Source: Bacteroidota bacterium
Lineage (GTDB): Bacteria > Bacteroidota > Rhodothermia > Rhodothermales > Bin80
Assembly (NCBI GenBank): GCA_026709065.1
Contig: JAPOTS010000076.1
Location: 1 to 40,731 of the forward strand
DNA: 40,731 nt
Direction of reading: 5' to 3'
The notes beneath the pieces are model-generated. The model saw only the letters and a program-made list of their open reading frames with translations. It was not told the DNA's origin and searched no databases. This document shows positions 1 through 40,731 of the stretch, piece by piece. A program made the translations under genes and the position numbers. The number at the start of each line of letters is the position of its first letter. Within the stretch, counting starts at the first letter, position 1.

Positions 1-1652
1 TTTGAAGATAAATGAAATATAAAATAAGTAAGGTTATTTTTTCGCCTGCCCTAAGAGCATACTGGAAAGGTAGCTGTTTGGTGTCCTTTGCTGGTTCTAA
101 AGCATTTGTAAGATATATTCGGGCGCGCTGATTGCTCTCAAAATTATATTCAGTTTCATAAAGTTTAAGACTGATTTTGAAGTGAGCAATCACATACGGA
201 GCCATGAGGAGCTCATACCCATATAACCTTGGTAGCAAGTGTTTCGATACATAGTTGCTCCATACAGAAATAAATCCCCCCCCCCCTAAAAAATTTGGAT
301 TTTTTATATTTTTCTTGTAAAGTTTTATGTATACGATCAATTACCTCTACCAAAAATGTCCCTGTGCCAGTGGCAGGATCAAGAATTTGCACAAAATGAG
401 TTTCAGGTGTAACTCCATCTGGAATGATTACATCCTTATTTCGCAGTGACACATCTCCCCAAGAACTTGTATCTGCTAATCCATCCTCCAAACCAAATTT
501 TTTCCGTAATAGAACATCAATTGACTCAACAATATACTTAACCACGGGAAGAGGAGTATAAAAAACACCCCGTTTGACCTTTTGCTCCTTATCATATTGT
601 GCCAGAAAATTTTCATAAAAATGGATCACTGGATCCTCACGAGGGTTTTTGTCTCCAAAGTCTCGAATCACTGGTTCCATATCTGTATTACTCAAAAAAT
701 CCTGAACTTCACTCACTCCCAACTCATCAAAGTCTAGCTCATGTCCAGTCTCATCAAGATTCATAAATAGCATCATCAACTCGTGGAGAAGAGGATTCGT
801 CCGCAAGCTGTTTGTTAATTCCAAGGCTGAGCTATCTTCCCTGCTTGTTATACGAGCCGACAATAATCCATAAGTGATGGTTTGAGCAACCATATCTGCA
901 AACTGTTGATTATCAAGATTATGAACTAATGTCTCCTGAAAACTCTTCATCAGGCGGGTGATATCACCAGATTCAGTTTCTATCTCCAATGCTGAAATGA
1001 TTCGTTCGCGAATTCTTCTTGCCAGCTCAGCTAACCTTTCAGAAAGCTCTTTGGAAGTACGAATAGCATGTTCATAATTAGTTGTGAATGCTTTTCTCCA
1101 CTGTTTACGCCAAGTATCATGATCTGAGTCCGAAGGCCATGCTAAGTATTGTGTCAACTGCTGATGAACATGCTTTAGATGCAGTTGAGTATTTCGCTCA
1201 TCCCAGTCAATGACCTTCAATTTTGATGCCCTTTTATTCTGAGCAGTGAAATGTGCAAATGTAATATGTCGCTGTCCAGATATTCCATAATTTGAAATAA
1301 ATAGTAAATCTTCCATTTTCCATTTTCGATCATCCGTACCGATAGTTCTGTTCTGTTTCTCAAGAAAGTGGTTCAGTATTCTCCTAAGTGCAATGATTGG
1401 TAATCGTTTAGGATCAAACTCAACAAAAATAATTCCCCAAGGCTGATTCACATGAAGAGGTCTCATACGTTTGATTGACTGGATTTTGGCAGCGTTCTTA
1501 GAATCAAGTCCTAAATCCTCGGAAGAATATTCAAAAAAAATGTCCTCAATATTTTCTGGTCTTACTGGCCAGTCCATTTCATCATGCAAATACGCTATGA
1601 GCTGTTCAAAATCCTGGATATTTACAAGTCGGGTATAGTTATTCTGATTCAT
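1..1652 (-). CDS. N6-adenine DNA methyltransferase subunit, frameshifted at a poly-G tract (phase-variable), 3' end outside window
   Basis: Translation from the ATG at 1652 gives a type ISP/type I-like adenine methyltransferase: an N-terminal domain with NQPWGIIFVEF (69-79), FADMVAQTITYGLL (251-264), RGVFYTP (361-367) and the SAM-binding motif I DPATGTGTFL (425-434). Frame 0 then crosses eleven G (plus strand 276-286), yields an unrelated tail and stops at 213. From the tract to base 1 a different frame is open and reads LLPRLYGYELLMAPYVIAHF, then RIYLTNALEP, both characteristic of ISP-family methyltransferases. Ten or 13 G would restore one continuous protein; as sequenced it is truncated and probably inactive. 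The catalytic NPPY motif is not seen before the window edge. It lies 44 bp behind the helicase gene, on the same strand. Specificity is unknown. Family assignment is from motifs, not a search. Confidence 0.85.
276..286 (-). repeat. Poly-G(11) homopolymer inside the methyltransferase gene (C11 on plus strand)
   Basis: Eleven consecutive C on the plus strand read as G on the coding strand, at codons 456-459 of the methyltransferase. The tract sits exactly where coding shifts from frame 0 to the frame carrying the rest of the domain. Long poly-G tracts slip during replication and are a known mechanism of phase variation in restriction-modification genes. A count of 10 or 13 puts the gene in frame; 11 or 12 puts it out. 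It is the longest mononucleotide run I noticed here. Confidence 0.9.
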
Positions 1653-1696: not shown

Positions 1697-4600
1697 TCAA
1701 ACACCAATCGGAGCATCAACCTTTTTGAGATAAGTATTCTTGATATGATTTTCTATCTTTGCACGAATTTCAATTAATGTCTTTTGTTCAATTATGCATT
1801 TTCGGGGAGTATTTACTTTGGAGCGAATCCTCTCAATTATTTCTTCTGGTTTATCAAGGATTGATTCACGATCTAAATCATAGAGGTACCATCGGGTAAT
1901 TCCCGACTCTTGTGTAAACTTGCCTTCTTTTATATCTAATGCTGGAAGTCTATAACAGAAAAAGACTGCCTCTCCAAACAGTGCTACTTGCTTCTTTCCA
2001 CTGAATACCGACCCCGGAAAATGGCTTAATCTATCCTCAAGTTCTGGATCTGATTGAAGTAATTTTTGATACTCCAAATGCATTTCCTCAATGGATGACA
2101 TTGTGCCCCTATACTTTGAATCAAAATCATTCCAAATCTTTAAATCTTTGTATTTGTCCTCAGGACGGAGTAGTGTGCCACCTTCAATTCCCAATGTTTC
2201 CGAAATGATCAAAGTCTTTTTCGTCACCGTTTTATATAAAGATAGAATTTGGTTTAGCTCATGGGGAGGTAAAAAATTCCAGAACATTACATTTCCCCGA
2301 GATGTTGCAGTATCTGGACGATCGTGAGTTAACCGCTCTTCAATTTCGGGATCCATTCTTCTGTCTACCCGACCGATCCGTTGCATCAAGCGAACAGGGT
2401 TCCAGTGTATGTCATAGTTAATGAGGCGGGAAGCATCCTGAAGGTTTAATCCCTCTGATAAAACATCAGTTGAAATCAGAACGCGTATTTCTTCTAAACC
2501 TTGATTTAGTAGTTCTGATTTACTTAAACCATTATAATAAGGAGAAAACTGATTGATAATATCTGCCCGATTTTTCTTGGTACCACTGTCTACCTGCCCA
2601 ACCCCAGTAATTCCAGATTGACTAAGTTGACTTTTCAGGTATCGCGCAGTGTCTGCAAACTCAGTAAAAATGAGAACCTTCTGCCCCTCTAACCCCTTTG
2701 ACCTAAGCAACCGAATCAGCTTCTGAAGCTTATCATCGTGTTTTGGTTGAAATTTTCGAGCCTCTTCAAGAAACCGTATGATCTGTTTCAGGTCAGAAAA
2801 GGTTTCTTCTATCATGCCGTCAACATCATACTCATTCCTATTGAGTTGCTCAACTTTTGCAAGTATTTCTTGAGGAATAATATCTTCATCTTCCTCCATC
2901 TCGGAGTGATCATGCCATATTTCCATTTGACGTCTGTTACCATATCCGAGAACTTCGCTATTTTCGATTTGCCAAGTATTGAGAGTTAACTTATGCAGTT
3001 CACTTTCACAATGGATTTTCAAAAATGCTAACAGCTTCTGTAGTAGACGGTAACATGAAATTTCAAATGCAACTACAGAACTCTCAAACCTTTTGAGAAA
3101 ATTTGTGCGAATCAAGCTTACGACCTGCTTCTGGCGGTTTTCGTCAAATGGATCAATCTCTTTATCAGGGCCAATATACCAAAAAAGTGGATAGTACATT
3201 GGAAGAGTAAACAAAGGATTTTTCTTTGCAAAGGCTTCATCAAGAATATCCAGCATTCTCCCATAGGTTTTACGGATAGAGTATTTAGCAACTTTTGGCC
3301 TATGCCTTTTTGGAAACATTGCCGCATCACCATACTGCCTCTTTTGACTTTCTTGAGCATACGCTCTACTGCGCTGAACGACCAGCTGTCTAAAAATTTC
3401 CTGTCCAGAAAGGATTTCCTGAGCCTCAGTCAAATGCTCCGCAACATCAACCATTTCTTGTTCAACTCGAGTACGCAATTCGTTCTCCATCCTACTGAAA
3501 TGATATTTCAAATTATTGATTCCTAAGGTGTTTGAGAAATAACTATGATCTTGCCCAGAAAACAACTCAATCATATGTCGGAAATCAACAATACCATTAT
3601 TGATTGGCGTCGCAGTAAGCATATAAACAATCTTTTTGCGTTTAGATCTGTCTATTAAGTCAAACAACTTGTAGTATCGTGAAGGATTTTTTTCAGTGTC
3701 TTCATCACCTCTACTACCTGGATTCCGAAAATAATGTGCTTCGTCAATGATCACCGCATCTGCTAATTCAGACAAGCGTTCAAAGCGTTGCGGAAAATCA
3801 CCTTTGCGGCTCAAATCTGTATGGCTAAATATCGCAAGATTACTAAAATCCTCACTCCCGCTAATTCCTCCGATATGACTGAGATATTTCTTTAACGCAG
3901 GTACCCATACGGCATCTTTCACTGCCTTCGGAGCAAACAATACGACGCGTTTGTTTTCGTGAACAGTTAAACGCTCAATAAGCATCAAGCCAACAAATGT
4001 CTTGCCCAGCCCAACTGCATCACAAAGAAATGCTCCCCCATGACGACTGCCAATTTTCATGAGTGCAGAGTAAGCTTCTTTCTGATACTGATCTAAAATT
4101 TTGAATATGTGGGACTTGGTTTCATCCCATTCGGATGCTGTCAACTCATGGCCCCGAAAAAATTCCTGTAACGCTTTTGCATAAACATCAAAGGGCTTGT
4201 ATTCGTAGGTGTGACGTTCAACCAACTTGACAACTGTACCAGTCACCTCAACCGCTTGCTCCCAATATTTTTCAAACCACTCTTGAAGTTGTTTTACTTC
4301 TTCATATTGTTCAATTTGAACATTCAGTTCAATATTTTCGGTTAACCCAGGCCGAGTAAAATTACTTGAACCCACCAAAGCATGTGCGCGAATGACTTTG
4401 GGACTTGGATGAGTGATATATGCCTTAGCATGAAATTTTTCCTTGTTATAGATCCGACACTCAATCCTACCCGTACTTAACGCTTCTAAGATTCCCTGTA
4501 CACCATTTAAGAATGGATTCTTGATTTTTTCTGCTTCCAATCTTCCCTCCAATTCGTCGGTTGCACGTTTTTCTACACCTTCCAGAATCAATTTCTTAGT

Positions 4601-4831
4601 TCGGTCAGTGGTTTCTGATCCCATGAGAATCCGAATCTTTTTGAGTTTTTGCCACTGGCCATCAAGGGCAATCAATGATCCAATCTCAAAGTAACCTGTT
4701 GCAATATCAAATGATTGTGCAAGATCACACCATTGATTGAGATAACTCTGTCCGTCCCATCCTTCAATGCTGTTGTCCACAATGAAAAGCCCGTATGGTT
4801 CAGGCATTGTTAACGATTTATTATTATCCAT
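1697..4831 (-). CDS. PLD-nuclease/SNF2-type helicase of a restriction or defence system
   Basis: A 1044-residue protein with two parts. Residues about 30-200 form a phospholipase-D-like domain with HAK at 134-136 and GSSNF at 154-158, the HxK...GSxN arrangement of PLD nucleases such as those linked to restriction helicases. Residues about 240-830 form an SF2/SNF2-like helicase: Walker A DAVGLGKT (271-278), DEAH (363-366), TATP (406-409), LIFTEF (720-725), STDVLSEGLNLQDA (787-800) and QRIGRVDRR (817-825). The C-terminal ~210 residues are unassigned. It precedes the methyltransferase in a likely two-gene operon. I infer an ATP-driven DNA translocase carrying its own nuclease, i.e. the restriction half of the system. 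I saw no disruption. The ATG at 4831 is followed by another at codon 9, so the start could be slightly later. Confidence 0.85.
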   Translation of the reverse strand: MDNNKSLTMPEPYGLFIVDNSIEGWDGQSYLNQWCDLAQSFDIATGYFEIGSLIALDGQWQKLKKIRILMGSETTDRTKKLILEGVEKRATDELEGRLEAEKIKNPFLNGVQGILEALSTGRIECRIYNKEKFHAKAYITHPSPKVIRAHALVGSSNFTRPGLTENIELNVQIEQYEEVKQLQEWFEKYWEQAVEVTGTVVKLVERHTYEYKPFDVYAKALQEFFRGHELTASEWDETKSHIFKILDQYQKEAYSALMKIGSRHGGAFLCDAVGLGKTFVGLMLIERLTVHENKRVVLFAPKAVKDAVWVPALKKYLSHIGGISGSEDFSNLAIFSHTDLSRKGDFPQRFERLSELADAVIIDEAHYFRNPGSRGDEDTEKNPSRYYKLFDLIDRSKRKKIVYMLTATPINNGIVDFRHMIELFSGQDHSYFSNTLGINNLKYHFSRMENELRTRVEQEMVDVAEHLTEAQEILSGQEIFRQLVVQRSRAYAQESQKRQYGDAAMFPKRHRPKVAKYSIRKTYGRMLDILDEAFAKKNPLFTLPMYYPLFWYIGPDKEIDPFDENRQKQVVSLIRTNFLKRFESSVVAFEISCYRLLQKLLAFLKIHCESELHKLTLNTWQIENSEVLGYGNRRQMEIWHDHSEMEEDEDIIPQEILAKVEQLNRNEYDVDGMIEETFSDLKQIIRFLEEARKFQPKHDDKLQKLIRLLRSKGLEGQKVLIFTEFADTARYLKSQLSQSGITGVGQVDSGTKKNRADIINQFSPYYNGLSKSELLNQGLEEIRVLISTDVLSEGLNLQDASRLINYDIHWNPVRLMQRIGRVDRRMDPEIEERLTHDRPDTATSRGNVMFWNFLPPHELNQILSLYKTVTKKTLIISETLGIEGGTLLRPEDKYKDLKIWNDFDSKYRGTMSSIEEMHLEYQKLLQSDPELEDRLSHFPGSVFSGKKQVALFGEAVFFCYRLPALDIKEGKFTQESGITRWYLYDLDRESILDKPEEIIERIRSKVNTPRKCIIEQKTLIEIRAKIENHIKNTYLKKVDAPIGV

Positions 4832-40177: not shown

Positions 40178-40187
40178 GGGGGGGGGG
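40178..40187 (+). repeat. Poly-G(10) homopolymer 3' of the ATPase gene
   Basis: Ten consecutive G on the plus strand, 23 bases beyond the stop of the minus-strand ATPase gene. It is outside any supported coding frame on either strand, so no switch can be demonstrated. After the tract at 276-286 it is the longest G/C run in the window. Confidence 0.85.
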
Positions 40188-40210: not shown

Positions 40211-40731
40211 CTACTCATATTCATCCACCAGCCATGTGTGGAAGGAGGGTATAGGAATACCGTAGTCCCCGTCTTCTCGCTCATCAACGATTCCTCGCTC
40301 AAGTGCTTTATTGAAGAGAGATTCGGCCACTTCTGAGGTGTACTCATTCTCAAGTACAGATATGATGTCATCAAGCTCCTTGGTTTCTCCTAATGGAACA
40401 TCAGCGAATATTTTTGCCAGAATCTGCCGCTTCTTTCTGTCAATGCTATTCATGCGCGATATGTAATACATCTCCCGATATTCTGCGCCCTTCTCAAGTA
40501 CAAACTTCAGCCCTTCATCTGTCATGAAGTGATTGTTTGATTTAAGACATTTCAAGGCAGGCTTAACATAGGAGATGATGTGATGGGGCCACCCATACGC
40601 TTGTTCCGCAATGGACTTAATCCAGACCTGAGGATCTCCCTTTGCTCTCCCATATTTGATGAGCCAGTCTCGGATCACGGCGCACTCTGATTTCTTATCC
40701 AGCCTCCCAAGTTGCACAGTACAATCACCAT
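40211..40731 (-). CDS. C-terminal part of an AAA-type ATPase, 5' end outside window
   Basis: A frame open to the right edge encodes at least 172 residues: VQLGRLDKKSECAVIRDWL, an EQAYGWPHHIISYV motif, then a long helical region and a winged-helix-like end, stopping at TAG 40211-40213. The GWPHH segment after a helical lid is typical of the lid/sensor region of AAA ATPases related to TniB/Orc1-like proteins. The nucleotide-binding part lies beyond the window. The role is unknown; the accessory surroundings suggest a mobile or defence context. Confidence 0.6.
   Translation of the reverse strand, partial: GDCTVQLGRLDKKSECAVIRDWLIKYGRAKGDPQVWIKSIAEQAYGWPHHIISYVKPALKCLKSNNHFMTDEGLKFVLEKGAEYREMYYISRMNSIDRKKRQILAKIFADVPLGETKELDDIISVLENEYTSEVAESLFNKALERGIVDEREDGDYGIPIPSFHTWLVDEYE

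What the first reader, a model, noticed from the sequence alone, without database searches (positions are those of the whole stretch)
1..1652. Phase-variable adenine methyltransferase: G11 tract switches the catalytic domain out of frame
Directly seen: motif I (DPATGTGTFL) in frame 0, then an 11-G run, then the next conserved blocks (LLPRLYGYELLMAPYVIAHF, RIYLTNALEP) one frame over. Ten or 13 G would join them. Homopolymer phase variation is established for restriction-modification genes in several phyla. Here it would turn modification on and off in a lineage where I do not know of a described example, and might act as an epigenetic switch.
Basis: partly seen in the sequence, partly recalled or inferred. 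Interest (0 to 1): 0.78.

Follow-up and report, generated by a model that had tools for sequence, protein, structure and literature searches.

The report
Poly-G switches in bacterial DNA-methylation genes
A run of 11 Gs does knock a DNA-methylating restriction enzyme gene out of frame, and it is one of about ten such G-run switches in methylation genes of this uncultured bacterium and its sister species; this particular copy is also cut by a jumping gene, so changing the run alone would not turn it back on.

Summary
In detail: an 11-G run (276-286, minus strand) splits an adenine methyltransferase gene, and 10 or 13 Gs would join the halves exactly. The gene is the methylation and specificity half of a type-ISP-like restriction system, next to a PLD-nuclease/SNF2-helicase gene. 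The nearest relative carries a 9-G run at the same place, in frame and intact.

The window is a whole contig. Its end lies inside a multicopy insertion sequence that also interrupts the gene; the rest, including catalytic NPPY, lies on another contig. Two lesions silence this copy, and tract length alone could not restore it.

Beyond the window, the genome has 31 runs of 9 or more Gs and no run of 10 As. Ten of the G runs sit in or beside methyltransferase genes, against 0.9 expected. In sister species orthologous runs differ in length (G16/G11, G14/G10, G12/G9) while their surroundings are about 91-97% identical. About one third are in frame. Switching in live cells and changed methylation are inferred. 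Long G runs also share an unexplained A(4-7)T 5' flank (43-48% against 0.6% of short runs).

The parts
276..286 (-). G11 tract (C11 on + strand), the frame-breaking homopolymer
   Evidence: whole-genome search
287..1652 (-). N-terminal part of the methyltransferase up to the tract: N-terminal region, coupler-like region, motif I DPATGTGTFL. The ORF as read (213-1652) stops 63 bases past the tract.
   Evidence: PF02384; PDLC03610 positions 148-379; LlaBIII alignment
52..275 (-). Continuation of the same gene one frame over (LLPRLYGYELLMAPYVIAHF ... RIYLTNALEP ... QYAL), up to the insertion sequence
   Evidence: (PDLC03610 positions 376-448)
1..51 (-). End of a multicopy insertion sequence; terminal inverted repeat at 34-52 read on the minus strand as AGGGCAGGCGAAAAAATAA. 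The gene resumes on contig C31 (L040:52-1791), which carries NPPY and the specificity domain.
   Evidence: same repeat at ends of contigs C6, C31, C105, C104; gap-free join to the G002 ortholog
52..54 (-). TTA target-site copy flanking the insertion sequence (TTA also begins the flank on C31)
1697..4831 (-). Upstream partner gene: PLD-type nuclease fused to SNF2 helicase (1044 aa); conserved next to the methyltransferase in G002 (73% identity) and G003 (68%)
40178..40187 (+). Second tract of the contig, G10, 23 bases beyond the stop codon of an AAA-ATPase-like ORF (40211-40729 -); role not determined

Best explanation
The tract is a genuine slipped-strand contingency tract in the methylase/specificity subunit of a type-ISP-like restriction-modification system whose motor and nuclease (SNF2 helicase plus PLD domain) are encoded by the neighbouring gene. 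Gain or loss of Gs during replication shifts the frame between motif I and the rest of the methylase: 10 or 13 Gs is ON, 11 is OFF. OFF removes methylation and target recognition. The tract belongs to a lineage-wide set of poly-G switches in methyltransferase and fibronectin-III surface-protein genes. At this locus the assembled genome also carries an insertion sequence in the same gene, so this copy is silenced twice and can return to ON only if the element is lost as well. Shown: tract, frames, homologs, insertion-sequence ends, length differences between species, enrichment. Inferred: slippage in living cells, loss of methylation, benefit from phage pressure or gene regulation.
For: Frame continuity exactly at the tract. 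No other stop in 95 + 580 codons downstream, so the OFF state is recent. The nearest ortholog (G002, 61% identity) has G9 at the same place and one open frame of 1106 aa. Twenty G runs of 10 or more against no A run of 10. Ten of 31 tracts of 9 or more lie within 700 bp of a methyltransferase domain, 0.9 expected, p about 1e-8; in six sister genomes 20 of 156 against 2.9 expected. One methylase group has tracts of 9, 9, 10, 11, 11, 11, 11 and 14 at one site, some ON and some OFF. Close ortholog pairs differ by clear indels: G16/G11, G9/G12, G14/G10, G9/G10, G12/G9, while 4 of 98 shorter runs in the compared regions differ. About a third of the inspected methyltransferase tracts are ON, as random frames predict. 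The C31 half is a Type_ISP_C specificity domain, E 2.5e-73. Joining C76 and C31 at one TTA gives a gap-free match to G002.
Against: No reads, population data or methylome could be examined; lengths are assembly consensus values. The contig C76-C31 link is inferred from the ORF and repeat ends, not from a spanning read. Not every tract is a switch: folD and mutS carry in-frame G10 and G9. All six of the genome's methyltransferase tracts of 10 or more are OFF, a mildly surprising outcome (chance about 9%). The ortholog in G003 has no tract.
Confidence: 0.82

Rival explanations
1. The gene is simply decaying: a frameshift that happened to fall in a homopolymer plus an insertion sequence, with no reversible switching at this locus.
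For: The insertion sequence interrupts the gene before NPPY. The G003 ortholog is also split at contig ends carrying a related inverted repeat, so this gene is often inactivated.
Against: The only frame break is at the tract, and 675 codons beyond it stay open. The G002 ortholog keeps a tract at the same site in frame. The same kind of tract recurs in at least nine other methyltransferase genes of the genome.
Confidence: 0.3
2. The 11 is an assembly or sequencing error and the true gene is always in frame.
For: Homopolymers are the usual place for consensus errors; reads were not available.
Against: Essential genes with comparable runs (folD G10, mutS G9) are read in frame. No A or T run of 10 exists to suffer such errors. 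Orthologous tracts differ by up to five Gs with both states present. Contig ends overlap by about 55 bases, as in short-read assemblies (inferred).
Confidence: 0.07
3. The tract is a programmed ribosomal-frameshift or transcriptional-slippage site that makes some full-length product from the 11-G gene.
For: Long homopolymers can cause RNA-polymerase slippage (general knowledge); an ISAzo13-type transposase of the same genome also has a G10 run between two frames.
Against: Lengths and frames vary between orthologs, including in-frame ones, which a programmed site would not need; the insertion sequence still interrupts the message.
Confidence: 0.08

Closest known systems
Cj0031c of Campylobacter jejuni, phase-variable type IIG restriction-modification enzyme (PMC4889913)
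   Same: Phase-variable fused adenine methylase of the IIG/ISP kind; in Campylobacter, phase variation uses G/C homopolymers (PMC8355987). ON/OFF changes methylation and phage restriction there (demonstrated).
   Different: Here the partner nuclease/helicase is a separate gene; lineage is a Bacteroidetes-labelled uncultured clade; no experimental switching; the gene also carries an insertion sequence.
LlaBIII / LlaGI, type ISP restriction-modification enzymes (PDB 4xqk, 5ffj)
   Same: Residues 229-1074 of the joined protein align to the LlaBIII coupler, methylase and specificity region; PF18135 Type_ISP_C.
   Different: Type ISP enzymes are one polypeptide with nuclease and helicase at the N-terminus; here a PLD nuclease and SNF2 helicase sit in a neighbouring gene.
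Multi-locus poly-G/C phasomes of Campylobacter (PhasomeIt, PMC6321876; 29 loci in NCTC11168, PMC4965091)
   Same: About 30 poly-G/C tracts per genome, concentrated in surface and restriction-modification genes.
   Different: Uncultured lineage with no sign of being a pathogen in what was examined; a shared A(4-7)T flank next to the tracts; mutS is present.
Phasevarions of type III mod genes (Neisseria, Haemophilus, Streptococcus suis; e.g. PMC2667262, PMC8125046)
   Same: Several tract-bearing genes here are N6_N4 methylases, one with the TypeIII_RM_meth domain.
   Different: No regulon or methylation change shown here.

Membership tests
SSR-mediated phase-variable restriction-modification gene | Simple repeat inside the ORF whose unit change shifts the frame | tested here: met
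   G11 between two frames of one profile
SSR-mediated phase-variable restriction-modification gene | Tract length varies between related genomes, giving ON and OFF forms | tested here: met
   G11 OFF here against G9 ON in G002; other groups of 9 to 16 Gs
SSR-mediated phase-variable restriction-modification gene | Reversible switching within one population | not testable with these tools
   no reads or strain-level genomes available
SSR-mediated phase-variable restriction-modification gene | Changing the tract alone restores a complete gene | tested here: not met
   insertion sequence lies between the tract part and NPPY in the assembled genome; met for the ortholog G002
Type ISP restriction-modification enzyme | N6-adenine methylase with motif I DPATGTG and motif IV NPPY plus Type_ISP_C specificity domain | tested here: met
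   (methylase on C76, NPPY and specificity on C31)
Type ISP restriction-modification enzyme | Nuclease, helicase, methylase and specificity domain in a single polypeptide | tested here: not met
   separate 1044-aa PLD + SNF2 gene upstream; the methylase protein shows no helicase match
Phasevarion | Switching changes expression of a methylation-dependent regulon | not testable with these tools
   needs RNA-seq and methylome of ON and OFF cells

The most novel reading that the evidence does not exclude
Poly-G switches in this lineage are installed by a common process: tracts of 9 or more Gs form a class apart (runs of 8 nearly absent in the stretches sampled) and carry A(4-7)T directly 5' of the G run in unrelated genes, in all three reading frames and on both strands. 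A dedicated slippage-prone module, or a mechanism that seeds such modules into genes, would explain a genome-wide, independently switching set of about ten methyltransferases.
Probability: 0.2. Interest if true: 0.82.

Novelty: new member of a known kind. Interest (0 to 1): 0.62.

Why it matters
A 2025 review of phase variation (PMC11868660) names as a major open question why genomes with many phase-variable loci appear restricted to pathogens, and suggests database bias as one answer. Here is an uncultured, Bacteroidetes-labelled lineage, with no sign of being a pathogen in what was examined, whose genomes hold up to about 40 poly-G tracts concentrated in methyltransferase and surface-protein genes. 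If switching is real, about ten independent methylase switches allow on the order of a thousand methylation states per population, testable with long-read metagenomes. The shared flank of the tracts may give a handle on how contingency loci are born.

Tried and rejected
Hairpin idea: pairing of the A-rich and T-rich flanks of the same tract is no better than between tracts, so only a one-sided flank is claimed. A ribonucleotide-reductase pair (G9/G11) was excluded because the difference comes from substitutions next to the run, not an indel. Poly-G counts in G006, G004 and G008 are partly GC-rich low-complexity or N-flanked stretches and were not used as evidence, apart from single methylase tracts read in sequence. 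The first genome-contig scan with the methylase found nothing. Habitat could not be settled: the nearest named records are MAGs CAR3_bin_16 and CAR4_bin_2, 'Bacteroidetes bacterium', and no paper naming them was found. Literature searches for poly-G phase variation in such symbionts found none in the open library. mutS has G9 only in this genome, so it is left as a side note.

Full report
WHAT IS IN THE WINDOW. The window is one whole contig (C76, 40,731 bases) of a 139-contig genome of 3.34 Mb, 98.4% complete and 0.8% contaminated. On the + strand 276-286 is C11, so the minus-strand gene has G11. ORF 213-1652(-) holds motif I (DPATGTGTFL); ORF 2-340(-), one frame over, holds the next conserved blocks. 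Both match one profile, PADLOC PDLC03610 of 1096 positions, at 148-379 and 376-448.

THE GENE GOES ON ELSEWHERE, BEHIND AN INSERTION SEQUENCE. The last 51 bases of the gene side of the contig are not methylase. They contain AGGGCAGGCGAAAAAATAA, which also stands at the ends of contigs C6, C31, C105 and C104 in matching orientations. Contig C31 starts with the other end of the same element and then continues the methylase: NPPY and a Type_ISP_C specificity domain (PF18135, E 2.5e-73). With one TTA counted once, the two sides join in frame and match the G002 ortholog without a gap (LPFQYALTALAKEGIEVDHIKRSTRFTVILGNPPYSGH). So the assembled copy is broken twice, and tract length alone cannot restore it. 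In G003 the ortholog is split at residues 408/410, again at contig ends with a related inverted repeat.

WHAT THE SYSTEM IS. The joined protein aligns over residues 229-1074 with LlaBIII, a type ISP enzyme, and more weakly with LlaGI. Its neighbour upstream, 1697-4831(-), is a PLD nuclease fused to an SNF2 helicase, and the pair is conserved in G002 and G003. It works like a type ISP system but is split into two genes, so it is not filed as a type ISP enzyme.

THE TRACT IN RELATIVES. G002, 61% identical, has G9 at the same place in a single open frame of 1106 codons. G003 (55-62% identical) and G013 (46%) have no tract there. The site is a variable-length loop after motif I, so a Gly-rich insert is plausibly tolerated (inference).

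THE GENOME-WIDE PATTERN. The genome has 20 runs of 10 or more Gs and 31 of 9 or more, and no run of 10 As or Ts. In 395 kb of sample, G/C runs fall from 71 at length 6 to 11 at 7, 0 at 8 and 1 at 9. Ten of the 31 lie within 700 bp of a methyltransferase domain; 0.9 are expected. In six sister genomes the count is 20 of 156 against 2.9 expected, significant in five of them and not in G002. The count for sisters is conservative: several type-ISP-like methylases with tracts in the C-terminal part fall outside 700 bp of the domain match. Other tracts lie just after signal peptides of fibronectin-III surface proteins.

LENGTHS CHANGE FAST. One group of eight type-ISP-like methylases has 9 to 14 Gs at one site, three ON and five OFF; a second group of N6_N4 methylases has C10 to C16. 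Between the close species G003 and G005, whose aligned regions are about 90-97% identical, orthologous tracts are G16/G11, G9/G12, G14/G10, G9/G10 and G12/G9; two pairs are equal, and one further difference is due to substitutions. Shorter runs in the compared regions differ in 4 of 98 cases. About one third of the inspected methyltransferase tracts are ON, as random frames predict. ON/OFF calls rest on the longest open frames on either side, not on proteomics.

AN UNEXPLAINED FLANK. Directly before the G run stands A(4-7)T in 13 of 30 own tracts and 19 of 40 in relatives, against 10 of 1691 runs of 4-6 Gs. The proportion stays below 1% for all runs up to 7 and is 10 of 19 from 9 on. It occurs in three reading frames (KNGGG, KKWGG, EKMGGG) and on the other strand (PPPHF, PPPIF), so it is a DNA-level feature. 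A hairpin between the flanks is not supported. The G11 of this finding has an AT-rich but not identical flank, while its ortholog in G002 has the exact one.

VERDICT. Observation confirmed; interpretation partly supported. The tract is very probably a phase-variation tract and one of many. This copy is also interrupted by an insertion sequence, so 'epigenetic switch' is better tested at the other methylase loci of the genome. The mechanism is of a known kind (poly-G phase variation of restriction-modification genes: PMC4889913, PMC6321876, PMC11868660). The lineage, the scale and the shared flank are new as far as the open literature searched here shows.

Noticed in passing
all G runs of 9 or more in G000 and sister genomes (e.g. 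L045, L044, L053, L051): A(4-7)T directly 5' of the G run in 43-48% of tracts against 0.6% of runs of 4-6 Gs; in unrelated genes, all frames and both strands.
   Followed up: partly
G000:C123:16361-16370 (L191, mutS): G9 run in frame at the conserved RGGADHSYG motif of mutS, absent from nine sister species that use mixed codons there; slippage would make a mutator.
   Followed up: partly
G000:C69:41569-41578 (L012): G10 run between two frames of an ISAzo13-type transposase (PF07592 positions 3-77 and 87-180).
   Followed up: no
G003:C12:173756 (L144): Two tandem EcoRI-type adenine methyltransferase genes, with G9 and G8 runs at the same site.
   Followed up: no
G001:C119:505 and 2607 (L199): Two tandem N6_N4 methylase genes with G9 and G12 runs at about the same site, both out of frame.
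   Followed up: no
G000 contigs C65, C91, C95, C119, C121 (L011, L019, L020, L025, L190): Family of secreted fibronectin-III proteins with a poly-C run just after the signal peptide, some in frame and some not.
   Followed up: partly
window 40178-40187: G10 run 23 bases beyond the stop codon of an AAA-ATPase-like ORF at the other contig end; related ATPase copies lie on C31 and C105.
   Followed up: no
G000:C55:91020 (L009, folD): G10 run in frame inside folD, a housekeeping gene; shows that runs of this length are not always assembled out of frame.
   Followed up: no
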